Assembly (NCBI RefSeq): GCF_002723975.1
Contig: NZ_BEWO01000010.1
Location: 1 to 64,000, forward strand
Source of the DNA: Gluconobacter japonicus
GTDB lineage: Bacteria; Pseudomonadota; Alphaproteobacteria; Acetobacterales; Acetobacteraceae
Reading direction: 5' to 3'
Length of the DNA: 64,000 bases
Part shown: positions 26,523 to 36,887 of the stretch, one piece after another
How positions within the stretch are numbered: the stretch's first letter is position 1
Layout of the letters: the number at the start of each line of letters is the position of its first letter
Notes under the pieces: model-generated
Databases searched by the model: none
Told to the model about the DNA's origin: nothing
Seen by the model: the letters and a program-made list of their open reading frames with translations, nothing else
Made by a program: the position numbers and the translations under genes

Positions 26523-27884
26523 TCATATCGAGATGTTAAGACGCTGAATGCGCATGGCCTCTTTACGATGCGCTCCAAGAATGTCTCTCAGGTTTTTCAG
26601 AACGGGCTGTCCATTTTCTACCAGGATACGGCCATTCACGATGGTTGTGCCCGCTGTTGCTGGGGCGCAGCGAAGCCATGCTTCCACCGGGTCTGTCAAC
26701 GCGCCAGCAAGGGAGATCTCCGACATCTGCCAGACGACCAGATCGGCACAAGCACCGGGTTTCAGATGTCCGATTTCATCGTCCCAGCCCAGACAGGCCG
26801 CTCCACCCCGTGTTGCCATATCCAGCGCATCCCGAGCCGTCATGGAATGGGGGCCATTCCGGAACCGCCCCAGCAAAAGCGCCATACGGGTCTCCAGCCA
26901 GAGCGATGCATGATCGGTGGAGGCTGATCCGTCACATCCAAGCCCAACCCTCATCCCCCTGCGGCGCATGTCCATGGCATCAGCAGAGCCACCACCGATC
27001 ATCATGTTCGAGCACGGACATTGCGCCGTACAGACACCCGCATGGGCGAGGCGATCGATCTCATCCGTTGATGGGTAGATGTAATGGGCAACCCAGGAGC
27101 GCGGGCTGGCCCAACCCACGCGCTCGAAATATTCCGTCGGGGTGCACCCATAAACGTCTGCGCAGTAGCGATCTTCGTCGTGATCTTCCGCCAGATGCGT
27201 ATGGAGGCGCAGATCATACCGGTCTGCCATGGACGCAGATTCCGTCATGATCCGTTCGGAAACACTGAAGAGCGAGCAGGGCGCAAGCGCAACCCGGCCC
27301 ATCGCACCGGGTGAAGCATCATGATACGCGTGAACAAGACGTTCACTGTCCGCGAGAATGGTGTCTTCGTCCTGCACGACCGACGCAGGTGGTAGGCCGC
27401 CATCCTCAATGGAACGCGTCATGGAACCGCGCGTAGCGTGGAAGCGGAACCCAATGTCTTTTGCCGCACGGAACTGCGCATCAATCAGGAACGGCTTGGG
27501 ATGGACGTACATATGATCCATCGACGTTGTGCAACCACCCATAAGAAGCTCAATCATGGCCACGGCAGTTGAAAGATAAACGGATTCTTCATCCAGCCCG
27601 GCCCAGAGCGGATATAGTCCTTGCAACCACTCGAACAACGTTCCGTTCGTGACGGGCGCATAGGCGCGGGTCAGGTTCTGGTACATGTGATGATGGGCGT
27701 TGATGAGACCGGGCGTGACCAATTTTCCATTGGCGGAGAGGTTTTTTTCAGCGCGTGGCGGCGTTTCGCCAGAATGCCCTACGGAATGAACACGACCGTC
27801 CTTCAGGGCAATCCATCCGTTCGGGATTTCCCAGTCTCGATCAATGTACAGATAGGCGTTTGTAACAAGGAGGCTGACCGTCAT
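26523..27884 (-). CDS. 8-oxoguanine deaminase (amidohydrolase superfamily)
   Basis: Predicted to deaminate 8-oxoguanine to uric acid (or a closely related aminopurine or triazine-like compound) in the cytoplasm. The 453-residue protein has the metal-binding NAHHHMYQ (His64 and His66), a later HTHLAED, the histidine in VAHYIYP and the aspartate in GCDGSASTD. The RFHATRGSM and GGLPPASVV segments are typical of the 8-oxoguanine deaminase branch. The start at 27884 has AAGGA seven bases upstream. It is the last of four minus-strand purine genes, separated from the others by 151 bases. An s-triazine or other aminohydrolase role is the alternative. Confidence 0.82.
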   Translation of the reverse strand: MTVSLLVTNAYLYIDRDWEIPNGWIALKDGRVHSVGHSGETPPRAEKNLSANGKLVTPGLINAHHHMYQNLTRAYAPVTNGTLFEWLQGLYPLWAGLDEESVYLSTAVAMIELLMGGCTTSMDHMYVHPKPFLIDAQFRAAKDIGFRFHATRGSMTRSIEDGGLPPASVVQDEDTILADSERLVHAYHDASPGAMGRVALAPCSLFSVSERIMTESASMADRYDLRLHTHLAEDHDEDRYCADVYGCTPTEYFERVGWASPRSWVAHYIYPSTDEIDRLAHAGVCTAQCPCSNMMIGGGSADAMDMRRRGMRVGLGCDGSASTDHASLWLETRMALLLGRFRNGPHSMTARDALDMATRGGAACLGWDDEIGHLKPGACADLVVWQMSEISLAGALTDPVEAWLRCAPATAGTTIVNGRILVENGQPVLKNLRDILGAHRKEAMRIQRLNISI

Positions 27885-28035
27885 TGCGGCGTCCTTTCCC
27901 GATACCATCAGCAAGCCATGACGGATCATGGCTTTCGCAGAAGGCCCTGTTCCGAAGGTGCGAACTCCGGATCGTCATCAAGCTGGTCTTGAACGGGCGA
28001 GGAACGGTCAGCCTAGCATCAGGATTGTAGGGATG

Positions 28036-28530
28036 TCACGTCGGATGGGCGTTCCAGAATTCTGCCTGAAGGGCCGCGGCTTCCTCTTCAAGAAGTGGAC
28101 CGATGACCTCAACGTTCTGCTGTCCGGCGCCGAAAACCGTGCGACAGGGAAGATCCAGCGTCGGATTTTCCGCATGATTGCCCGTCATGTCCTTGAGGCC
28201 TTTTTCCGACTGGCCGTACACGACGCGTCCAATGCCAGCCCAGTAAATGGCGCCAGAACACATCGCGCAAGGCTCGGCGGAGCTGTAGAGCGTGCATCTT
28301 CGCAGGCGCTCAGAGCCATAGGTACGGCTTGCACGACTGGCGAGCAGACGTTCGGCATGAGCTGTCATGTCGCAGCCTTCCGCGCTGTAGCCGTTGCCCT
28401 GTTCCATCAGGACTGTTCCGTCCGCGTCCACAAGGATGGAGCCGAACGGATGGTCGCCACCTTCGCGCGATTTGCGCGCTATATCAAAGGACAAGCGAAG
28501 GAAGCGGAGATCATCAGTGTCTGTCAGCAT
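28036..28530 (-). CDS. CDA-fold nucleoside/base deaminase (guanine deaminase-like)
   Basis: A 164-residue zinc deaminase of the cytidine-deaminase fold, similar to Bacillus-type guanine deaminases and plant guanosine deaminases. The zinc site is HAE at residues 58-60 and PCAMC at 87-91, with GGDHPFGSILVD before it. Its start overlaps the end of the amidohydrolase guanine deaminase by 7 bases, so the two are coupled. Because a guanine deaminase of an unrelated family lies directly upstream, this one may act on another substrate such as guanosine, a methylated guanine or an aminopurine. The exact substrate is not visible. Confidence 0.83.
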   Translation of the reverse strand: MLTDTDDLRFLRLSFDIARKSREGGDHPFGSILVDADGTVLMEQGNGYSAEGCDMTAHAERLLASRASRTYGSERLRRCTLYSSAEPCAMCSGAIYWAGIGRVVYGQSEKGLKDMTGNHAENPTLDLPCRTVFGAGQQNVEVIGPLLEEEAAALQAEFWNAHPT

Positions 28531-29870
28531 GGGTGAGACGCCTTTTCCTTGATTTGACGGCCATTGACCCAGACGCGGCCAATGGTCTGTGAGGATGCGT
28601 GGCAAACGATTTTTTGTGCACAGGTGGCGGCATCGTCTTTTGGATGCAGTCGCAGAGCGCCAGACGTTCCCAGAATTTCGACGGCATCAAACATCTGACC
28701 TGGCATGAGTTGCCCGGCAGAAACCCCCAAGGCTTCAGCCCCTCCGCGTGTGGCCAGCCAGAAGGCTTCCTGAAAGTCGATCCGGCTTTTGGGTAACCCA
28801 CGCTCTGAGACGGGAAGGTGAGGATTTGTGCCGCTTTCCAGTAAACGGGACGTCAGAACCGCCTGCCGGGCATTTTCGAAAATCGAGGGCGAATAGCCGC
28901 CGGAAATATCCGTGCCCAGCCCGCAATGAACATGCTCGTCCAGAACATCCCGCACAGGGAGCGCGGCTCCGGCAAAAAACGCATTGGAAATGGGGCAATG
29001 CGCCAGTGCCGCGTTGCGGTTTTTAACGAGTGTCCGGTCAGTCTGATCCAGAAATCCAGCGTGGGCCAGAACCGTATGATCGCGCAGCAGACCAAAGCGG
29101 TCCAGCGCGTGGGTATCCGTCTGGCCTGTGCGATCCAGAACGTGCTGGTGTTCCCAGTCACTTTCCGACGCATGGGTTTGAACCCGGACGTTCAGTTCGG
29201 CAGCCAGTGCGCCAAGCCCTTCCAGAAGCGCGTCCGAACATGCGGGGATGAAGCGCGGGGTGATGACAGGCTGAACGAGGCCGTATTCATTACCCGGAAG
29301 AGTACGAACGGCCTCAATGAACCGACGCGTTGCATCGAGAGCCTCCTGAGCGCTGGTCTGTCGGTAATCCGGTGGGCACAGGTCTGGGTGATCCATTGCC
29401 ACGAGCCCGACAAACCCGCGTTGACCATAGCGAAGGCAGGTCCGTGCCAGAACAAGGCTGGCTTCTTTGTGGATAGTCGCGAAATAAAGCGCCGTTGTGG
29501 TGCCGTTCTCCAGCAGGGTGCGGACAAGATCGTCATAAACGCTTTCCGCAAAAGCAGGATCAGCGTAGCGGGCTTCCAGGGGAAAGGTATAGGTGCCAAG
29601 CCAGTCTTCAAGCGGTCGATCCAGCGCCATGCCAGCTTGTGGCCATTGCGGAGCGTGAATGTGCAGGTCTGTCAGGCCGGGGATAAAAAGCGCGTCATCG
29701 GGCAGCCAGACTGCGTCCTTTCGGCCAGACAGAGCGTCATAACGTGCTGTATCTTGAAGAGTGCGTTCCTGAATGGTGCCATCCGTATCGACCAGAAGAG
29801 CTACGTTTTCGAGGCGAGTGCTCTGGGGCGTCTCCGATGTCAGAACGCGCCCGATGATGGTCTCAGTCAC
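28524..29870 (-). CDS. guaD: Guanine deaminase (amidohydrolase superfamily)
   Basis: Hydrolyses guanine to xanthine and ammonia. The 448-residue protein has the metal-binding HIHAPQ (His70, His72), WLGTYTFPLE typical of guanine deaminases, a QTHASES metal histidine, LAHAGFL, HCPISNAFF and GTDISGG with the catalytic Asp. The GTG start at 29870 overlaps the TGA of the preceding oxygenase gene (GTGA), so the two are translationally coupled. This puts xanthine production directly next to a putative purine oxygenase. The fit to the guanine-deaminase family is good, and no key residue appears missing. Confidence 0.88.
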   Translation of the reverse strand: MTETIIGRVLTSETPQSTRLENVALLVDTDGTIQERTLQDTARYDALSGRKDAVWLPDDALFIPGLTDLHIHAPQWPQAGMALDRPLEDWLGTYTFPLEARYADPAFAESVYDDLVRTLLENGTTTALYFATIHKEASLVLARTCLRYGQRGFVGLVAMDHPDLCPPDYRQTSAQEALDATRRFIEAVRTLPGNEYGLVQPVITPRFIPACSDALLEGLGALAAELNVRVQTHASESDWEHQHVLDRTGQTDTHALDRFGLLRDHTVLAHAGFLDQTDRTLVKNRNAALAHCPISNAFFAGAALPVRDVLDEHVHCGLGTDISGGYSPSIFENARQAVLTSRLLESGTNPHLPVSERGLPKSRIDFQEAFWLATRGGAEALGVSAGQLMPGQMFDAVEILGTSGALRLHPKDDAATCAQKIVCHASSQTIGRVWVNGRQIKEKASHPC

Positions 29871-30706
29871 GCGAGTACACCATAGGTGACGCCTTTAGCC
29901 TTCAGCCAGCGCCGATAGGCCACCGAGGATCGGTCCGCCATGGTCGGGATCTCATACTTACCATCCAGAGGCATCAGGCGAGGGCGCTGGTTTTCGAGAA
30001 TGATCCTGTCCTGAAGGAAGATGAACTGCTGGAACTCCACCAGCCCTTCGAGAGGTGAGGCTTCATCGATCAGAAACATGACGGGATGGGCCCGTGAGCG
30101 TGTGGGCGTCATGGGCTGGACGAAAAGCGCAATCACGTCCTGACGTTCAGGAGAGGCAGGGCATGTCTTATAGAGAAGTGTCGAGAAGGGCGCCGCTACA
30201 CGGTAGGTATAATCGGTGAGAATACTGCCGGAGGCCGAAAGAGCGGCCTGTGGCTGAAAGAACGTACAGTCCGTTGCCCAGATTTCTTCGCCCCCGTCGC
30301 GGGTTTCAATCTGATATCGGCGAACCTCGGTTTCCGGCTCTGCCCCGAGAATATTGGTGTGAACAAACGGAAAATGCGCCATGTCGAGAAAGTTCTCAAC
30401 AACCCTGAGGCCAGATGAATGGACGGCAATGGACCCACAGCAGACCAGTCGCCGATCTGGCTCCTCCGCTTCAGGAATAGACGGAATATCGCGCACCGGT
30501 TCTCCCAGAGACGTCCAGAGATACCCGTAGCGTTCACGGACGGGCAGGGAGCGGTTCCCGCAGAGGACCTGAAGAGCGCCTTGATCGTCGCGTGAAACGT
30601 CGATGAATCTGTCCAGCAGCATCGTCTGAAAATGCGGTTCCGTCAGATCTTCCAGCATGGCGAGCGGATACCATTGTGATAACGTTTCCGAATCAACGGT
30701 ACTCAT
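29867..30706 (-). CDS. Rieske-type oxygenase catalytic domain protein lacking its own Rieske cluster
   Basis: A 279-residue protein that is clearly the mononuclear non-heme iron half of a Rieske oxygenase (VanA/NdmA group). The iron site is ENFLDMAHFPFVH, with Asp108, His111 and His116, and a third ligand Asp233 in FLQDRIILENQ. The N-terminal Rieske domain is missing. Residues 1-50 keep only its outer strands and run straight from VLCGNRSLPV into RERYGYLWTSLGEP, which normally follows the second cluster motif; no CxH/CxxH pairs are present. The DNA is intact and the gene heads a coupled operon, so this looks like a designed split, as in NdmC of caffeine degraders. The separate Rieske protein is divergently encoded at 31059. 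Confidence 0.85.
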   Translation of the reverse strand: MSTVDSETLSQWYPLAMLEDLTEPHFQTMLLDRFIDVSRDDQGALQVLCGNRSLPVRERYGYLWTSLGEPVRDIPSIPEAEEPDRRLVCCGSIAVHSSGLRVVENFLDMAHFPFVHTNILGAEPETEVRRYQIETRDGGEEIWATDCTFFQPQAALSASGSILTDYTYRVAAPFSTLLYKTCPASPERQDVIALFVQPMTPTRSRAHPVMFLIDEASPLEGLVEFQQFIFLQDRIILENQRPRLMPLDGKYEIPTMADRSSVAYRRWLKAKGVTYGVLA

Positions 30707-30834
30707 GGGGCATGGACCTGCTGCTGGTGACGGTTGACCCCCAGTTAATCATGACATCTGGTGTCGGTGGAATAAGGAATATTGATAATCCGGAAAATTC
30801 TTATTGTGAAATGAGATAAGGAGGGCATGATTAT
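30707..30834. promoter_or_regulatory. Divergent promoter region of the purine locus
   Basis: A 128-base spacer that must carry promoters for both arms of the locus. A strong AAGGAGG site (30818-30824) serves the plus-strand small gene. No regulator gene is present in the locus and no operator could be singled out, though the part around 30776-30815 is AT-rich. Confidence 0.5.
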
Positions 30835-31062
30835 ATGGTCCGGGAGATTCGTCTCACAGGGCATTTTGATCCTGAGGCGTTACAGGCCTTTGTGAAGGCC
30901 CGCGCAAGGCTTCTGGCCGTGGAGATTACAGAGATGTCCGTATCACAGTTCTGTTTCGAAGCCCGGATTGTTGGGGAGGAAGCCCTGCTTGGCATGTTTG
31001 AAATGTCCTGCCTTTTGGGGCCTGCAGGCTGTATCGTGACTGGTGCGGAAGACATCGCGTGA
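30835..31062 (+). CDS. Small protein of unknown function, first gene of the purine oxygenase/transport operon
   Basis: A 75-residue soluble protein with no family that I recognise. It has a very strong ribosome binding site (AAGGAGGG ending 9 bases before the ATG), and its stop overlaps the GTG of the Rieske gene (GTGA), so it is almost certainly translated. The predicted pattern is strand (REIRLTG), helix (PEALQAFVKARARL), two strands and helix (EEALLGMFEMSCLL), a small alpha/beta fold. It has two cysteines but no CxxC or His-rich metal motif. Position suggests a function tied to the split oxygenase, perhaps assembly or structure; this is inference. Confidence 0.75.
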   Translation: MVREIRLTGHFDPEALQAFVKARARLLAVEITEMSVSQFCFEARIVGEEALLGMFEMSCLLGPAGCIVTGAEDIA

Positions 31063-31670
31063 CAGACTGGTTTCCCCTTGCGCTTGGGATGGATGTCCCA
31101 CCCGAAACTGCAGCACCGGCCCGTTTGTGCGGGAAAGAAATCGCTCTGTGGCGCGGCGCAGATGGAAATGTTCATGCCTGGGAGGACCGCTGTCCCCATC
31201 GAGGTATGCGACTGAGCTTCGGCTTTGTGCGGAATGGCAATCTGGCCTGTCTGTATCACGGCTGGCAGTTCGGCGCGGACGCCACCTGTCGTCATATTCC
31301 CGCCCACCCAGAACTGCGTGTACCCGGAACAATCCATGCTCATCCCTATCGGGCGGAAGAGCGGGCCGGAATGATCTGGGTGTCCCTGAATGAGGACGCA
31401 AGTCTGGACGAACTGCCGGATGGGGATGCATTCGGCGCGAGAAGTATCCTCGTCCAGGCACCTTTGGCTTCAGTGCGCGCCACTCTGGCGCTCCCGGAGG
31501 AGGGATGGAACTGGCAGGAAGACTGCCTCTTGGCGGTTCATGAACCCGAACCCGGTCTAACAATGCTCCACATGGCAGCCACAACGCTGGCTAACCGGCT
31601 GGACGTTGCAGCAAGAGCCAAAACCACCAGAGACCGTCTCGAAGCACTCAACGAAAAGGTTCCGGCATGA
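31059..31670 (+). CDS. Stand-alone Rieske [2Fe-2S] protein
   Basis: A 203-residue protein whose first 115 residues form an oxygenase-type Rieske domain. Cluster ligands are Cys45/His47 in CPHRG and Cys64/His67 in CLYHGW; it begins with the oxygenase-type MTDWFPLAL. It lacks the mononuclear-iron half. After the Rieske domain is a tail of about 85 residues (from GARSILVQAPLASV) with no recognised fold and a charged helical end. The obvious partner is the Rieske-less catalytic protein divergently encoded at 29867; in NdmD of Pseudomonas an extra Rieske domain plays this part for NdmC. Start is a GTG overlapping the previous stop; the stop overlaps the next ATG. No NAD(P)H reductase is in the window. 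Confidence 0.87.
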   Translation: MTDWFPLALGMDVPPETAAPARLCGKEIALWRGADGNVHAWEDRCPHRGMRLSFGFVRNGNLACLYHGWQFGADATCRHIPAHPELRVPGTIHAHPYRAEERAGMIWVSLNEDASLDELPDGDAFGARSILVQAPLASVRATLALPEEGWNWQEDCLLAVHEPEPGLTMLHMAATTLANRLDVAARAKTTRDRLEALNEKVPA

Positions 31671-32227
31671 GGCTGCGAGATTGGGCACTCGACGACCGGT
31701 GCTATGCCGTCCGGCTGGGTGCGTCGCTGATGGGCGTGCATCTTCCAACTCTCACAGATGCTGCTGCCCTGGAAACCGGACCCGTGCTTGAAATTGATGG
31801 GGGTTGTCTTCGTGGCCCCGCCGATATCCTCCAAAGGCTGACCAGTCTGCCCGAAGTCTCCCGAGACTGGCATCTTGGCATTGGTGAAGAACGGCGGGAC
31901 GCGTGGGCAGAAGGTGCGCTGGAACGTTTTTCGCATTTTCGCCGGACAGCGCTTCTGGCTGCGTTACCGACAGATGGGATTCCTCCTTCAGTGTTTCGTT
32001 TGATGACTGAAATTGAGGATCGCCTGTCAGACGACCGTCTGTGTGACCGTCTCTGGGTCTCGGGAAGGCATCCGGGTGTTGCCGATATTCTGCTGTTCCC
32101 GATCGTCACTTTAAGTCAGGATCTGGAAGTACCGCTGGATCTCTATCCGGCGATCCGAAATTTCATCCGGCAGTTCAAGGCGCTACCCGGATTCATGACG
32201 ATGCCAGGAGTGCCGGAATGTCATTGA
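31667..32227 (+). CDS. Glutathione S-transferase-like protein (possible NdmE-type subunit)
   Basis: A 186-residue GST-fold protein. The N-terminal thioredoxin-like part is short (RDWALDDRCYAVRLGASLMG, then VLEIDGGCLRGPADILQRL). The helical C-terminal domain is well preserved, with HPGVADILLFPIV and YPAIRNFIRQFKALPGF. Where active GSTs have a catalytic Ser/Cys near the N-terminus there is DDRC, so activity is uncertain. It is coupled by ATGA to the Rieske gene and overlaps the transporter gene by 10 bases. In the known N7-demethylase, a GST-like protein (NdmE) is a structural subunit bridging NdmC and NdmD, and the same role is inferred here. Confidence 0.78.
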   Translation: MRLRDWALDDRCYAVRLGASLMGVHLPTLTDAAALETGPVLEIDGGCLRGPADILQRLTSLPEVSRDWHLGIGEERRDAWAEGALERFSHFRRTALLAALPTDGIPPSVFRLMTEIEDRLSDDRLCDRLWVSGRHPGVADILLFPIVTLSQDLEVPLDLYPAIRNFIRQFKALPGFMTMPGVPECH

Positions 32228-33327
32228 AAGACCTGACACGTCTTCCTCGGCGCAGAGCATTGGCCGCTCTCGGAAGCTCGCTCTTGCTGCCTTCCACACT
32301 CAAGGCCGGGGCTGCCGAACGTCGTTTTGCCCCTATTCGGGAAGAAGATCTTCTGGTCGGTTTCGGGCACACCAGCCCGATCACGGACGGTGGGTGGAGT
32401 TATGCGCATAATCAGGGTGTTGAAGCCATGAAGCGCGCCTATCCGGCAGTGAAAACGCTGTTTGTCGAAAGCGTCCCGTATTCCGCAGACGCAACGCGCA
32501 TCTTTCGCCAGTTCGTGGCGGAAGGGGCGCAGATGGTCATCTCCACGTCCAATTATGGAGATTTCATCAAGGATGTTGCGGACCGGGCGCCGAATGTGGC
32601 GTTCATGGAATGTGATGGTCATACCGTCAGTAATAATCTGGGTTGGTATTACATTACGCACTGGTATGCGAGTTATGTGATCGGCATTGCGGCCGCACGT
32701 CTGAGCAAGACCGGGAAACTAGGATATGTGGCGTCGTTCCCGGTACCGTCTGTCTATGCAAGCGCCAATGCCGTTCTTCTGGGCGCCAGATCGGTCAATC
32801 CGAACGCGACGATGCGCGTCATTTCCATCAACTCCTGGTTCGACCCGCAAGCCGCAACCGAGGCTGGAGCGGCTCTCGTAGACAGTGGGTGTGACTTCCT
32901 GTGTGGCATCATGGATGATCCGGGCTATCTGCGTGTAGCGGAAAAGCGCGGTGTCTGGGCGGCTATGTGGAACACCGACATGCGAGAGTTTGGGCCGAAC
33001 GCTTATGTCAGTTCTGTCACGCTGGATTTCGCCGATTTCTATATCCAGCAGGTCGGCGCACGCATCCGGGGGGAATGGGGGCCAGAAGGTCGTTTCCTGA
33101 CGCTGGGCAAGGGTGTTGACCGGGACCGCTGGGGCCAGAACGTGCCGGAGGCGGTGCAGAAGGAAGCGGACGCAGCCAGAGACCGGATGCTGGCTGGATG
33201 GTCGCCATTTCAGGGGCCGATCTATGATTCAGACGGTAAGCTCCGCGTTCCGCCGGGCCATGTCATGACCGACGCGGAAATGTATGGCTGGAGTTGGCAG
33301 GTGCAGGGAGTATCCGGCCTTGGCTGA
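32218..33327 (+). CDS. BMP-family ABC transporter substrate-binding protein (purine/nucleoside)
   Basis: Periplasmic receptor of a BMP/PnrA-type importer, 369 residues. The N-terminus has RRR followed by a hydrophobic stretch (ALAALGSSLLLPSTLKAGA), suggesting export, possibly by Tat. Family motifs include VGFGHTSPITDGGWSYAHNQ, NVAFMECDGH and GKLGYVASFPVPSVYASANA. BMP proteins of this type bind purine nucleosides or nucleobases. It overlaps the GST-like gene upstream and the ATPase gene downstream. The transporter and the purine enzymes share one divergent locus, which supports import of a purine-type substrate. Confidence 0.88.
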   Translation: MSLKDLTRLPRRRALAALGSSLLLPSTLKAGAAERRFAPIREEDLLVGFGHTSPITDGGWSYAHNQGVEAMKRAYPAVKTLFVESVPYSADATRIFRQFVAEGAQMVISTSNYGDFIKDVADRAPNVAFMECDGHTVSNNLGWYYITHWYASYVIGIAAARLSKTGKLGYVASFPVPSVYASANAVLLGARSVNPNATMRVISINSWFDPQAATEAGAALVDSGCDFLCGIMDDPGYLRVAEKRGVWAAMWNTDMREFGPNAYVSSVTLDFADFYIQQVGARIRGEWGPEGRFLTLGKGVDRDRWGQNVPEAVQKEADAARDRMLAGWSPFQGPIYDSDGKLRVPPGHVMTDAEMYGWSWQVQGVSGLG

Positions 33328-34906
33328 CGTCTCACATACACCCAATGCGCCGCCTCGCCATCTTCCCGCCGGAACGCCGCCCATTCTGGAACTGGTGAAT
33401 ATCGCGAAATATTTTCCCGGTGTTATCGCTAATGAGCATGTTTCCCTGAACGTCTTCCCTGGTGAAATCCACGCGCTTCTAGGGGAGAACGGGGCAGGGA
33501 AATCCACTCTGATGAATGTGGTCACGGGTCTGTATCAGCCAGATGCCGGTGAAATCATCATTGATGGATATGGCACCACATTCCCAGCTCCAGATGCAGC
33601 CATTTCGGCGGGGATTGGCATGGTGCACCAACATTTCCGGCTGGTGCCACGCTTTACGGTGGCGGAAAACCTGCACCTTGGCTGGTCAGAAACCCCCAAA
33701 CGCCTTTCTGCGAAAGATATCGAGGGAAGGGCCAAAGAGCTTTCTGCCAGATTTGGACTGCCGGTGCGGCCATCGGCCATTGTTTCTTCATTGTCGGCGG
33801 GTGAGCAGCAGCGGGTCGAAATTTTGCGCGTGCTTTCTCGTGGTGCGCGGCTGCTTATTCTGGATGAGCCCACGGCGGTTCTTAGCCCGGTTGAGGTGGA
33901 TGAGCTGTTTTCGGGTCTGCGTCGGTTTCGGTCTGAAGGGGGGGCGGTCATCATCATCAGCCATAAGCTGGACGAGATCATGGCTCTGGCAGATCGTGTC
34001 TCCGTTCTACGTCAGGGGCGTCTGGTCGGTACTCATCATGTGGCGGATGTGACGCCTGACAGCCTGGTGACGGAAATGATTGGGCGGCCTGTTGCTCTTG
34101 CGACGTCCTATCCTCGTCAGGTTCCCGTTCTGGAGGTCGGGAAGGCAGAACTACTTTCCCTTCAGCAGGTCACGGTCCGTGATAATGCGGGGGTCGTCCG
34201 ACTTGAGAATGTCAGCCTTTCCCTGCGTCCCGGCGAAATCCTCGGGATTGCCGGAGTAACGGGAAACGGCCAACCTGAACTGGCTGAGGTCCTGACCGGT
34301 CTGAAAGACCCTGAAAGTGGAACCATTTTTCTGAACGGCAAGGCTGTAAACCGTGCGGACCCGGCCATGTTTGCCCATGCCGGAGTTGGGCATGTTCCGG
34401 AGGACCGCCTCAAACGCGCACTGATGCCGGGTTTAAGTGTCGCGGAAAATATGGCCCTCCGGGAGTATGATCGCCCTCCCATTGGCGGAAAGTTTGGCTT
34501 TTCCATGCCGCAGGCCCGCAAATTTGCGCAGATGTTGGCCGATAAGGCGGGTGTCAAACTCCCTGGAACACAGGTGCAGATACGTGGCCTCTCTGGTGGT
34601 AATCAGCAGAGACTGGTTCTGGAACGGGAAATCCGGATCGCAAGCCATGTTCTGGTTGCGAGTTACCCAAGCCGTGGTCTGGATATTGGTGCCATTTCCG
34701 CGATGCGCGACATGCTCGCCCGCGCCCGGGACGCAGGTGTGGCCGTAGTTCTCATGTCGGAAGATCTGGACGAAATTTTTGCTCTTAGCGATCGAATTGC
34801 CGTCCTGTATGCAGGACGTCTCATGGGGATCATGGCGCGTGCGGACGCAGACAGAGACAGTATTGGGGCTCTCATGAGTGGTCGTAGCCTGTCGGAGGCC
34901 GCATGA
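33320..34906 (+). CDS. ABC transporter ATP-binding protein, two NBDs (nucleoside/purine importer)
   Basis: A 528-residue cytoplasmic ATPase with two nucleotide-binding domains. The first has Walker A GENGAGKST, signature SAGEQQ and Walker B LLILDEPT. The second has the degenerate Walker A usual for this family (GVTGNGQPE), signature SGGNQQ and PSRGLD. The TTG at 33320 is chosen because GGAG (33307-33310) is 9 bases upstream and the protein then begins just before the first NBD; it overlaps the binding-protein stop by 8 bases. It energises the two permeases encoded next. Confidence 0.9.
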   Translation: MADVSHTPNAPPRHLPAGTPPILELVNIAKYFPGVIANEHVSLNVFPGEIHALLGENGAGKSTLMNVVTGLYQPDAGEIIIDGYGTTFPAPDAAISAGIGMVHQHFRLVPRFTVAENLHLGWSETPKRLSAKDIEGRAKELSARFGLPVRPSAIVSSLSAGEQQRVEILRVLSRGARLLILDEPTAVLSPVEVDELFSGLRRFRSEGGAVIIISHKLDEIMALADRVSVLRQGRLVGTHHVADVTPDSLVTEMIGRPVALATSYPRQVPVLEVGKAELLSLQQVTVRDNAGVVRLENVSLSLRPGEILGIAGVTGNGQPELAEVLTGLKDPESGTIFLNGKAVNRADPAMFAHAGVGHVPEDRLKRALMPGLSVAENMALREYDRPPIGGKFGFSMPQARKFAQMLADKAGVKLPGTQVQIRGLSGGNQQRLVLEREIRIASHVLVASYPSRGLDIGAISAMRDMLARARDAGVAVVLMSEDLDEIFALSDRIAVLYAGRLMGIMARADADRDSIGALMSGRSLSEAA

Positions 34907-35949
34907 GCGCTGTATCGCATCGGACCCGTCTGACGGTTGTTCCTTCTTACCGCATCGCTGTAGGGCGGGGATTATCCATCCTTGCAGCCCTCAACATTGT
35001 CGCCATAACTCTGACTGCCATGGGACGCTCTCCCGTTGAACTCGCTGGGCTGATTGTGCGCTCTACGGTTGGCTCCCGGTTCGGAATTGAAGATCTGGCC
35101 CTGTTCATGACCCCGCTGATGCTGACAGGAGCGGCAGTCTGGGTCGGCATTCGTGTCAATTTGTGGAATATCGGCGCGGAAGGGCAGCTCTATGCTGGCG
35201 CGACTGCCGCCACGGCGATCGGGCTGTTCACAAACTGGCCTACGCTTGTTGCACTGCCTTCCATGATTGTTGCAGGCATGCTCGCCGGTGCGGCCTGGAT
35301 CTTTGTGCCAGCGGCTGCTCGGGCATGGTTGGGTGTGAGCGAAATTGTCACCTCGCTTCTGCTCAATTTTGTGGCCTCTTTGCTTGTCTATTATCTTGCA
35401 ACGGGCCCATGGGCTGATCGCGTCACCGGTGCTCTGGCCTCGACCGAGCGTCTGCATACGGCTTTCCCGGAACTTTGGGGTGCTGTTCATCTCGGCTTTA
35501 TTCTGGCGCTCGCAACTGTCATCGGTCTGGGGATCGGCCTAGCCAAGAGCCGCTTCGGATACGAAACGGCGGTCTGTGGCTCGAACCCGCAGGCGGCGCA
35601 CTACGCTGGGATTGGTGTGGCTCCCCGCATTCTGGCTGTCCTGCTGTTGTCGGGTGCCTTGGCGGGGCTGGCAGGTGTCTTTGAGGTCGCAGGAACTGTG
35701 CACCGGCTTCAGGGAGGCCTTGCCAACAACTACGGCTATCTGGGTATCGTCGTTGCGCTGCTGGCTCGCGGATCGTGCCTCGCGCTGATCCCGGCTGCTC
35801 TCCTGATGGCGTTGATCCTTGATACAGGCATCGTTCTACAGACTACCCAGATCAGTTCCTCGGCTGTTCTGGCCATTACCGGCCTTCTTGTTCTCGCCAT
35901 CGCGGCGGGAGATGAACTGGCGGCTTATGTCCGCGTGAACAGGACCTGA
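34903..35949 (+). CDS. ABC transporter permease (nucleoside/purine importer)
   Basis: An inner-membrane permease of 348 residues with about nine membrane segments, of the branched-chain/BMP permease class. The cytoplasmic coupling motif NIGAEGQLYAGA is at about residues 87-98, and FGYETAVCGSNPQAAHYAGI forms the second conserved loop. The ATG overlaps the ATPase stop. It pairs with the second permease at 35952 to form the heterodimeric channel. Confidence 0.9.
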   Translation: MSAVSHRTRLTVVPSYRIAVGRGLSILAALNIVAITLTAMGRSPVELAGLIVRSTVGSRFGIEDLALFMTPLMLTGAAVWVGIRVNLWNIGAEGQLYAGATAATAIGLFTNWPTLVALPSMIVAGMLAGAAWIFVPAAARAWLGVSEIVTSLLLNFVASLLVYYLATGPWADRVTGALASTERLHTAFPELWGAVHLGFILALATVIGLGIGLAKSRFGYETAVCGSNPQAAHYAGIGVAPRILAVLLLSGALAGLAGVFEVAGTVHRLQGGLANNYGYLGIVVALLARGSCLALIPAALLMALILDTGIVLQTTQISSSAVLAITGLLVLAIAAGDELAAYVRVNRT

Positions 35950-35951
35950 CC

Positions 35952-36887
35952 ATGGCACTTCTCAGCGATCTTCTTGGTCATGCCGTTCTTTCCGGTAGTG
36001 TTCTGGCTCTTGGTGCGCTTGGCGAGGTAATTGCCGAGCGGGCTGGCGTTCTGGATCTCGGTGTTGAGGGGCTCATGTCTCTCGGGGCTGTCGTCGCCGT
36101 CATGACAGTGACGGCGACGCCCCATCCATGGCTGGGCCTTCTGGCTGCCGGATTGGTTGGAGGAGTGGGAGCTGGCGTTCTGGCGCTTTCCAGTGTGGTA
36201 CTTCGTGCCAATCAGGTTCTGTGCGGCGTTGCCATTACATTCCTGGGGCTGGGACTGAGTTCTGTCATCGGGCGGTCTGTTGCCGGTATTCCTGTGTCTG
36301 CTGTATTTGAACCCGTCTCTATTCCGGTTCTTTCGTCCATTCCCGTCATTGGACCAGCCTTTTTTAGCCAGAATGTGCTGGTTTATCTGATCTATCTGGT
36401 TCTGCCGGGTCTGGTGCACTTCTGGATGTTCCGAACACGTTCCGGGCTGGATCTTCGTGCTGTTGGAGAAAATCCGGCCGCCGCCGATGCGGTCGGCGTT
36501 CCAGTCATGAAGCTGAGAGCGCTGGCTGTCATTCTGGGAGGCGTTCTGGCCGGTCTGGCGGGCGCTGATCTGACTTTGGCTGTGGTTCCGGTCTGGTCAG
36601 ATGGAATGATTGCCGGGCGAGGGTGGATTGCCGTCGCACTCGTGATCTTTGCGGGATATCGCCCTGCGGTGGCTGTGCTGTCTGGCTTGTTGTTCGGGTT
36701 AGTAACAGCAGTTGGTTTCATGGGGCAGGCGAGAGGGTGGCCGGTGGCGCCAGCCATTCTCAATACCTTACCGTATCTCGGAACGGTCGCCTGCATCATT
36801 GTGCCGATGCTGGCATTTGCGAAACTCAGGTCCGCGATGGCCGCACCGGCGGCTCTTGGAACACCATACTACCGGAGTGGAAGATAA
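35952..36887 (+). CDS. ABC transporter permease (nucleoside/purine importer)
   Basis: The second, smaller permease (311 residues, about eight membrane segments) of the BMP-type importer. It contains the coupling motif DLGVEGLMSLGA (about residues 35-46) and SGLDLRAVGENPAAADAVGV. It starts two bases after the first permease stop. It is the last gene of the plus-strand purine operon; no clear terminator hairpin was found in the 114 bases before the next gene. Confidence 0.9.
   Translation: MALLSDLLGHAVLSGSVLALGALGEVIAERAGVLDLGVEGLMSLGAVVAVMTVTATPHPWLGLLAAGLVGGVGAGVLALSSVVLRANQVLCGVAITFLGLGLSSVIGRSVAGIPVSAVFEPVSIPVLSSIPVIGPAFFSQNVLVYLIYLVLPGLVHFWMFRTRSGLDLRAVGENPAAADAVGVPVMKLRALAVILGGVLAGLAGADLTLAVVPVWSDGMIAGRGWIAVALVIFAGYRPAVAVLSGLLFGLVTAVGFMGQARGWPVAPAILNTLPYLGTVACIIVPMLAFAKLRSAMAAPAALGTPYYRSGR

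What the first reader, a model, noticed from the sequence alone, without database searches (positions are those of the whole stretch)
29867..32227. Split Rieske oxygenase with a GST-like subunit inside a purine locus
The catalytic iron domain (29867-30706, ligands His111, His116, Asp233) has lost its Rieske domain. A stand-alone Rieske protein (31059-31670, Cys45/His47, Cys64/His67) without a catalytic half is divergently encoded next to a GST-like protein. The only arrangement I know like this is NdmC + NdmD + NdmE, the methylxanthine N7-demethylase of caffeine-degrading Pseudomonas. Here the Rieske part is a separate small protein, and the locus also has guanine and 8-oxoguanine deaminases and a purine-type importer. 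It may be a new oxygen-dependent purine hydroxylase or demethylase in acetic acid bacteria, some of which live in tea and cocoa ferments.
Basis: partly seen in the sequence, partly recalled or inferred. Interest (0 to 1): 0.92.

Follow-up and report, generated by a model that had tools for sequence, protein, structure and literature searches.

The report
Split purine demethylase for modified guanines
A vinegar-type bacterium carries a purine-scavenging locus whose oxygen-using enzyme is broken into separate interlocking parts, a relative of a caffeine-breakdown enzyme that probably strips methyl groups from guanine-like bases and occurs in many alphaproteobacteria.

Summary
CAT (29867-30706) is a Rieske-less oxygenase with intact iron ligands; RSK (31059-31670) is a separate Rieske protein; GSTL (31667-32227) is GST-like. 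CAT is 45% identical to NdmC, RSK matches NdmD's N-terminal half and GSTL resembles NdmE, so this is of the NdmCDE kind. It differs: the Rieske protein is not fused to a reductase. The halves co-occur: 74 of 80 loci (six misses at the edge of the DNA held) and the same 8 of 120 Acetobacteraceae genomes. RSK's predicted fold aligns, loosely, along whole Rieske oxygenases, so RSK seems to keep a shrunken catalytic domain, while CAT keeps a Rieske domain with the cluster region cut out: complementary decay of two oxygenases. By homology this genome already covers xanthine C8-hydroxylation (Mo-XDH, HpxD relative) and guanine deamination elsewhere, yet the locus adds three more guanine-type deaminases and an importer. 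I therefore favour N-demethylation of methylated guanines (7-methylguanine first) over C8-hydroxylation. Substrate, complex and electron donor are inferred, not shown. The tea/cocoa idea is not supported.

The parts
29867..30706 (-). CAT: catalytic subunit, NdmC-like oxygenase with an excised Rieske cluster region; iron ligands H111, H116, D233; D108 in the bridging position
30835..31062 (+).
31059..31670 (+). RSK: standalone Rieske subunit (C45, H47, C64, H67) with a C-terminal domain that looks like a shrunken catalytic domain; matches the N-terminal half of NdmD
31667..32227 (+). GSTL: GST-like subunit, NdmE relative (short; only the GST C-terminal domain recognised)
30707..30834 (.). 128-base divergent region between the two operons, 87% mean column identity in five Gluconobacter sequences; no Rfam match
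28524..29870 (-). guanine-deaminase-type amidohydrolase, overlapping CAT by 4 bases; 364.8 bits to TIGR02967, just under the cut-off of 375.4
28036..28605 (-). cytidine-deaminase-fold, guanine-type deaminase (true start probably internal, near 28530)
26523..27929 (-). 8-oxoguanine-deaminase/AtzB-type amidohydrolase (552 bits to PRK08203, cut-off 532)
32218..33327 (+). BMP/PnrA-type substrate-binding protein; best PDB match 6pi5, atrazine periplasmic binding protein
33284..34906 (+). ABC transporter ATPase
34903..35949 (+). ABC transporter permease 1
35952..36887 (+). ABC transporter permease 2

Best explanation
A split, multi-protein Rieske N-demethylase of the NdmCDE kind, dedicated to methylated guanine-type bases. 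RSK carries the electron-delivering [2Fe-2S] cluster. CAT carries the mononuclear iron and binds the substrate. Each is the complementary remnant of a whole Rieske oxygenase, and together they make one working unit in which the cluster of RSK feeds the iron of CAT through Asp108. GSTL (like NdmE) holds the two halves together, and SML, an acylphosphatase fold without conserved catalytic residues, probably does too. A BMP-type ABC importer brings in the base. CAT hydroxylates an N-methyl group (most likely N7 of 7-methylguanine, or of 7-methylxanthine after deamination), which is lost as formaldehyde; the deaminases give xanthine, which XDH or HpxD turn into urate. Shown: the parts, their homology, their conserved pairing, the intact ligands and, by homology, the downstream pathway. 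Inferred: complex formation, the demethylase reaction, the N7-methylguanine substrate, and the reductase (a donor encoded outside the locus).
For: CAT is 45% identical to NdmC over its full length versus 23-26% to NdmA/NdmB-like neighbours, and forms one clade with NdmC against four full-length oxygenases (100/99). The RSK profile covers NdmD residues 7-241 (134 bits). In 120 Acetobacteraceae genomes, CAT and standalone RSK occur in the same 8 (Fisher 1e-12). A match of 60 bits or more to one of the window's deaminases lies in 47 of 80 loci; none of the five NdmD-type stretches has one (two of these, L085 and L122, share the same NdmC protein). CAT overlaps the guanine-deaminase gene by 4 bases. 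The genome has a separate canonical guanine deaminase (620 bits, cut-off 351) beside OHCU decarboxylase and a xanthine permease, Mo-XDH and a protein 60-62% identical to annotated HpxD, so neither guanine deamination nor xanthine C8-hydroxylation should need this locus. OHCU decarboxylase is in 38 of 38 genomes examined (G000 and 37 relatives), against 4 of 14 control genomes. CATs of the 80 loci all read IFLQDR at the Asp ligand, against IF[GA]QD[LIK] in 6 of 6 NdmD-partnered ones, five of them distinct: a clade-specific change next to the iron.
Against: No activity, complex or substrate is shown. 33 of 80 loci show no recognised deaminase and 24 show neither BMP importer nor deaminase (some stretches are cut short). 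The deaminase count rests on similarity to amidohydrolases, which may act on other compounds. L120 and L121, split but without SML, have no deaminase either. The 8-oxoguanine deaminase next door would also fit a guanine C8-hydroxylase. No formaldehyde-oxidising gene was recognised among the neighbours that I scanned, unlike the caffeine plasmid. One plasmid has CAT without RSK nearby (L124). The presence of XDH and OHCU says where the product may go, not what the substrate is, and the counts are not corrected for ancestry.
Confidence: 0.55

Rival explanations
1. A purine C8-hydroxylase, working like HpxD: it oxidises guanine to 8-oxoguanine, which the adjacent 8-oxoguanine deaminase turns into urate without molybdenum.
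For: An 8-oxoguanine-deaminase-type enzyme above the NCBIfam cut-off is in the locus; C8 lies next to N7, so the same geometry over the iron could serve; annotated HpxD proteins are related (30-31% over 79% of CAT).
Against: CAT is closer to NdmC (45%, full length) than to HpxD (30-31%). The genome already has Mo-XDH and an HpxD relative. At least 43 of 50 CAT-positive genomes have XDH over the cut-off. Many genomes with OHCU decarboxylase do without CAT (38 of 46 in Acetobacteraceae).
Confidence: 0.2
2. The same reaction as NdmCDE: 7-methylxanthine demethylation as the last step of breaking down plant methylxanthines (caffeine, theobromine).
For: Closest characterised relative is NdmC; the P. 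caffeinilytica caffeine plasmid also has BMP/ABC transport genes of this kind near ndm genes.
Against: A search of the genome with RSK found only two other Rieske proteins, L002 (HpxD-like) and L003, so there is no evident NdmA/NdmB pair. The relatives listed come from many genera. The residues beside the iron ligand differ from NdmC in 80 of 80 loci, and guanine-type deaminases are linked.
Confidence: 0.1
3. An oxygenase for another guanine-like compound (N2-methylated guanines, s-triazine-like or other N-heterocycles), with the AtzB-type amidohydrolase and the atrazine-binding-protein-like importer.
For: The amidohydrolase matches 8-oxoguanine deaminase and AtzB-type enzymes, a cluster in which N2,N2-dimethylguanine hydrolases were found (PMC13054789, abstract and section 7 read). 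The importer's best PDB match is the atrazine periplasmic binding protein.
Against: NdmC acts on an N7-methyl; the N2-dimethylamino group is already removed hydrolytically by NdmH enzymes, leaving no need for an oxygenase.
Confidence: 0.13
4. An ordinary oxygenase split by a frameshift, rearrangement or assembly error.
For: None found.
Against: The two halves lie on opposite strands in 74 of 80 loci from many genera, with conserved ligands in the 29 and 54 proteins aligned.
Confidence: 0.01

Closest known systems
NdmCDE, methylxanthine N7-demethylase of Pseudomonas putida CBB5 (compared here through the homologous locus on the P. caffeinilytica plasmid, L084; gene names there are my assignment)
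   Same: Rieske-less catalytic subunit, Rieske domain on another polypeptide, GST-like third subunit; all three homologous; RSK matches the N-terminal half of NdmD, beyond the Rieske domain.
   Different: The Rieske subunit is not fused to a reductase; an acylphosphatase-like protein is added; Leu/Arg instead of Gly/Ala and Leu/Ile/Lys beside the Asp ligand; linked to guanine-type deaminases rather than to ndmA/ndmB and formaldehyde-oxidising genes. A BMP importer is found near both.
HpxD, molybdenum-independent xanthine hydroxylase
   Same: Rieske oxygenase acting on a purine.
   Different: Full-length; 30-31% identical to CAT; a separate HpxD relative exists in this genome (L002).
SxtT/GxtA (saxitoxin-pathway Rieske oxygenases)
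   Same: Best PDB sequence match of both CAT and RSK and best fold match of RSK.
   Different: Full-length, different substrates; a distant relationship only.
Acylphosphatase (PF00708)
   Same: SML: 23 of 43 family members match at E<=1 (not the window's own), 16 of 17 PDB profile matches are named acylphosphatase, and the 12 best fold matches are acylphosphatases.
   Different: Positions of the catalytic Arg and Asn (recalled) are not conserved, so probably non-catalytic.
N2,N2-dimethylguanine hydrolases (NdmH) and 8-oxoguanine deaminase, AtzB cluster
   Same: The 26523-27929 amidohydrolase matches this kind.
   Different: Which of these substrates it uses is untested here.

Membership tests
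NdmCDE-type split Rieske oxygenase | catalytic subunit with intact 2-His-1-Asp site but no Rieske cluster | tested here: met
   H111, H116, D233 in 29 of 29; no Rieske Pfam match; Rieske flanks kept, cluster region lost (hhalign 97%)
NdmCDE-type split Rieske oxygenase | Rieske cluster on a separate subunit, paired with the catalytic gene | tested here: met
   74 of 80 loci; same 8 of 120 genomes; one exception seen, L124
NdmCDE-type split Rieske oxygenase | Rieske domain fused to an FNR/ferredoxin reductase (NdmD) | tested here: not met
   RSK is 203 aa; in 24 genomes searched with NdmD no listed match spans both halves, and the two G000 matches to the reductase half cover only residues 279-494, without the ferredoxin end
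NdmCDE-type split Rieske oxygenase | GST-like third subunit | tested here: met
   49.7 bits to NdmE; GSTL detected in 61 of 80 loci
NdmCDE-type split Rieske oxygenase | N7-demethylation of 7-methylxanthine | not testable with these tools
   needs enzyme assay
HpxD | full-length Rieske plus catalytic domain in one chain | tested here: not met
   CAT lacks the cluster region
HpxD | closest sequence relationship to annotated HpxD | tested here: not met
   30-31% to HpxD versus 45% to NdmC; L002 is the HpxD relative
Acylphosphatase (SML) | acylphosphatase fold | tested here: met
   AlphaFold pLDDT 96.3; top 12 fold matches acylphosphatases, TMq 0.75-0.87
Acylphosphatase (SML) | catalytic Arg in the P-loop and catalytic Asn | tested here: not met
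   alignment A5: neither position is among the invariant or nearly invariant columns; residue roles are recalled
8-oxoguanine deaminase (26523-27929) | score over the NCBIfam equivalog cut-off | tested here: met
   552.2 versus 532 bits; substrate not tested

The most novel reading that the evidence does not exclude
The locus encodes a system, not in print in the searches I made, for oxidative demethylation of 7-methylguanine (an RNA and DNA breakdown base), run by a four-protein oxygenase that arose when two duplicated Rieske oxygenases decayed in complementary ways, one losing the cluster and the other the iron site. The caffeine enzyme NdmCDE would be a specialised relative in which the Rieske half is fused to its reductase.
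Probability: 0.3. Interest if true: 0.78.

Novelty: new variant of a known kind. Interest (0 to 1): 0.62.

Why it matters
NdmCDE has been described as unique among Rieske oxygenases (PMC4408171, passages read), and the structure of its complex as unsolved (PMC13237722, passages read). This places it as one branch of a large, mostly alphaproteobacterial family with a smaller Rieske subunit free of the reductase, perhaps better suited to structural work, plus an extra subunit. It suggests how one catalytic unit can be split over two genes by complementary decay, and it points to a little-explored route by which bacteria may recycle modified guanines. The prediction can be tested directly with four small genes.

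Tried and rejected
Frameshift or assembly split: rejected, conserved in 74 of 80 loci.

Tea/cocoa specialisation: rejected, wide distribution.

SML fused inside NdmD: tested with an SML profile, no NdmD match above 1 bit; rejected.

Riboswitch in the locus: no Rfam match up to E 0.5 in window 20000-44000.

Direction of evolution, fused versus split: the tree cannot decide; the outgroup branches are very long and a split member (L121) nests with S. meliloti NdmC2. So 'split is ancestral' is not claimed.

Class-wide co-occurrence: the even draw was too broad. 14 of 241 genomes matched, but only G000, G231, G145 and G126 over the whole query; the other ten are partial matches, mostly to longer frames. 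I used the family-level draw instead.

Sequence proof that RSK's C-terminus is a catalytic remnant: weak on its own. hhalign gave 20% probability, and the whole RSK and CAT alignments matched only over 41 N-terminal columns. hmmsearch gave median best-domain 5.7 bits in 71 CAT ORFs versus -2.7 in 250 controls, but only -1.2 in 11 named NdmC, CAT and full-length oxygenases; the top control reached 9.0 bits, and the CATs are related so the p-value is inflated. The claim rests mainly on the fold search, whose superpositions are loose (rmsd 5.1-9.8 A in the 50 listed rows).

Literature: searches gave no paper, in their listings, on a bacterial 7-methylguanine demethylase or a standalone-Rieske NdmC partner. 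The library holds open-licence papers only. The first description of NdmCDE (Summers 2013, cited in the papers read) was not looked up or read.
Full report
What is there. Four genes make the system: CAT on the minus strand and SML-RSK-GSTL on the plus strand, 128 bases apart. CAT overlaps the next gene, a guanine-deaminase-type amidohydrolase, by 4 bases. SML-RSK and RSK-GSTL overlap by 4 bases, GSTL-BMP by 10, BMP-ABC by 44 and ABC-permease 1 by 4. The left operon therefore reads CAT, amidohydrolase deaminase, cytidine-deaminase-fold deaminase, 8-oxoguanine-deaminase-type enzyme; the right reads SML, RSK, GSTL and a BMP-type ABC importer. The window is from a Gluconobacter relative: CAT is 96-97% identical to G. 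thailandicus and G. frateurii.

Homology. CAT is 45% identical to NdmC of the P. caffeinilytica caffeine plasmid over full length (242 bits) and 23-26% to its NdmA/NdmB-like neighbours. RSK gives 83 bits and GSTL 50 bits to NdmD and NdmE (the gene names on that plasmid are my assignment from order and similarity). A profile of 72 RSK proteins covers NdmD residues 7-241 (134 bits), so NdmD looks like a whole RSK plus a reductase. CAT and NdmC form one clade against four full-length oxygenases (100/99, 46 rows). The residues IFLQDR around the Asp ligand are found in the CATs of 80 of 80 loci. The six NdmD-partnered ones (five distinct) read IF[GA]QD[LIK]; L121 reads IFVQDK, and L120 lacks the motif.

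Complementary decay. CAT's first 74 residues align with both flanks of RSK's Rieske domain while the stretch with the cluster ligands is missing (hhalign 97%, E 1e-10). RSK's model (mean pLDDT 94.5) has a beta-alpha-beta-beta-beta-alpha domain after the Rieske domain. Foldseek aligns the 203-residue model along Rieske oxygenases (GxtA, SxtT, dicamba monooxygenase, NdmA and others) over 241-302 columns, gaps included, with TM-score by query length 0.59-0.78 and rmsd 5.1-9.8 A in the 50 listed rows of 1124 matches. A Rieske domain alone (about 115 residues) could hardly give more than about 0.57, but the high rmsd says that the two domains do not superpose tightly as one body. Sequence support is weak but falls mostly in one place: of 64 CAT ORFs with a positive score against the RSK C-terminal profile, 47 start at residues 180-219; the median over 71 CATs is 5.7 bits against -2.7 for 250 control proteins, and -1.2 for 11 named NdmC, CAT and full-length oxygenases. 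I take this, with caution, as a shrunken catalytic domain without metal ligands.

Fourth protein. SML has no Pfam match by itself, but 23 of 43 family members match PF00708 at E<=1. Of 17 PDB profile matches, 16 are named acylphosphatase and the best one is an uncharacterised protein. The 12 best fold matches of the model (pLDDT 96.3) are acylphosphatases (1ulr by its name). The catalytic residues (recalled) are not conserved.

Conserved pairing. Of 80 related loci from genomes (the best of at least 565), RSK is found in 74, always divergent from CAT. In the six without it (L030, L033, L035, L036, L038, L065) the stretch or contig ends where RSK would lie, judged by gene order; the genomes of L033 and L038 do hold an RSK-size Rieske match. 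SML is found in 65, GSTL in 61 and BMP in 54. A match of 60 bits or more to a window deaminase is found in 47; 45 of the 54 with BMP have one. On plasmids the module also occurs in one orientation as SML-RSK-CAT-GST-amidohydrolase-BMP-ABC (L086, L097, L123). Two unnamed alphaproteobacteria have RSK, CAT and an NdmE relative without SML (L120, L121). One plasmid (L124) has CAT with no RSK found within about 9 kb, which goes against strict pairing. In an even draw of 120 Acetobacteraceae genomes, nine matched CAT (E<=1e-30) and nine matched RSK (E<=1e-25). G330 (CAT search) and G405 (RSK search) are partial matches in longer frames and I dropped them, leaving the same eight genomes for both (Fisher 1e-12).

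Metabolic setting. OHCU decarboxylase, a marker of urate breakdown, is in 38 of 38 genomes examined (G000 and 37 of the 50 CAT-positive handles; 4 of 14 control genomes). In the 120-genome draw it is in 8 of 8 CAT-positive and 38 of 112 CAT-negative genomes (p 3e-4). Mo-dependent XDH over its cut-off is in 43 of 50 CAT-positive genomes (50 of the 80 loci were sent), and in 7 of 8 CAT-positive versus 30 of 112 CAT-negative Acetobacteraceae (p 1e-3). In both XDH searches only part of the candidates of large genomes was scored, so the XDH counts are lower bounds. None of these counts is corrected for ancestry. The window's genome has XdhABC, a full-length oxygenase L002 that is 60-62% identical to proteins annotated HpxD, and a second purine cluster on contig C14 with OHCU decarboxylase, a PbuX-type xanthine permease and a canonical guanine deaminase (620 bits, cut-off 351). 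By homology, ordinary guanine and xanthine are thus handled elsewhere. The window locus adds three different guanine-type deaminases and an importer whose best PDB match is the atrazine binding protein, which points to modified guanines. None of the five NdmD-type stretches (L084, L085, L087, L095, L122; two share one NdmC protein) has a match to these deaminases.

Electron supply. No NdmD-type reductase was recognised among the neighbours scanned. In the window's genome, NdmD matches to the reductase half are limited to two ORFs of 403-410 aa that look like flavohaemoglobins by eye. A PF00175 search gives these two, a 1309-aa frame (L088) that I did not identify, and L091; L091 is a ferredoxin-NADP-reductase-like protein (156 bits, below its cut-off). 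A protein with a Reductase_C domain also exists (L118). Several other CAT-positive genomes do hold reductases with up to 43% identity to NdmD's second half, but no listed match in the 24 genomes spans both halves of NdmD. The donor is unknown.

What was known. PMC4408171 (passages read) describes NdmCDE as the first case of a Rieske domain split off and fused to a reductase, with a GST-like protein needed for activity, and notes homologous clusters of unknown function in 18 more organisms, apart from the closest ones mostly Sinorhizobium and Mesorhizobium. PMC12445004 (passages read) reviews Rieske oxygenases; the passages shown treat NdmA, NdmB and NdmD but not NdmC. PMC13237722 (passages read) says the NdmCDE complex is unsolved. 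PMC13054789 (abstract, section 7 and passages read) reports N2,N2-dimethylguanine hydrolases in the same amidohydrolase cluster as 8-oxoguanine deaminase; 'Rieske' and 'oxygenase' do not occur in its main text. PMC8055839 (passages read) surveys ndm genes in coffee-borer bacteria.

Verdict. A real, conserved new variant of the NdmCDE kind. That it works as one split Rieske oxygenase is very likely (about 0.9); that it demethylates methylated purines is likely (about 0.55-0.6); that 7-methylguanine is the main substrate is a lead (about 0.3).

Noticed in passing
L002 1408-2463 (window genome contig C1): A full-length Rieske oxygenase, 60-62% identical to annotated HpxD, coexists with Mo-XDH in the window's genome.
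   Followed up: partly
L125 5222-10060: A same-genus genome (G330) without an XDH match over the cut-off and without the split module has an HpxD-like oxygenase (72% to L002) near OHCU decarboxylase and a xanthine permease, as if HpxD replaces XDH there.
   Followed up: partly
L126 5609-11623 (window genome contig C14): Second purine cluster: unassigned 481-aa protein, OHCU decarboxylase, PbuX-type permease, canonical guanine deaminase.
   Followed up: partly
L087 14977-19258: S. meliloti pSymA has two tandem NdmC-like genes with one NdmD-like and one NdmE-like gene, near a BMP importer and a molybdenum hydroxylase.
   Followed up: no
L124 8968-9834: A Roseicitreum antarcticum plasmid carries CAT with no RSK or GST-like gene found within about 9 kb.
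   Followed up: no
L085, L095, L122: P. fulva, K. pneumoniae and P. putida plasmids, all typed conjugative, carry NdmC-NdmD-NdmE-like genes with TIM-barrel and 2-oxoglutarate oxygenase genes (HpxO too in L085 and L122); in L085 the NdmE match lies in two frames.
   Followed up: no
L097 22667-23842: In Qingshengfaniella the module is followed by a YcaQ-family DNA glycosylase gene; such glycosylases act on N7-alkylated guanine (recalled), a possible source of 7-alkylguanine.
   Followed up: no
L014, L017, L018, L021, L023, L024, L026 (Komagataeibacter): RSK, GSTL and CAT are kept, but no SML, BMP importer or deaminase is found nearby.
   Followed up: no
L121 8686-9878: A split member nests with S. 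meliloti NdmC2 in the tree, so the fused or standalone state of the Rieske partner changed at least twice.
   Followed up: partly
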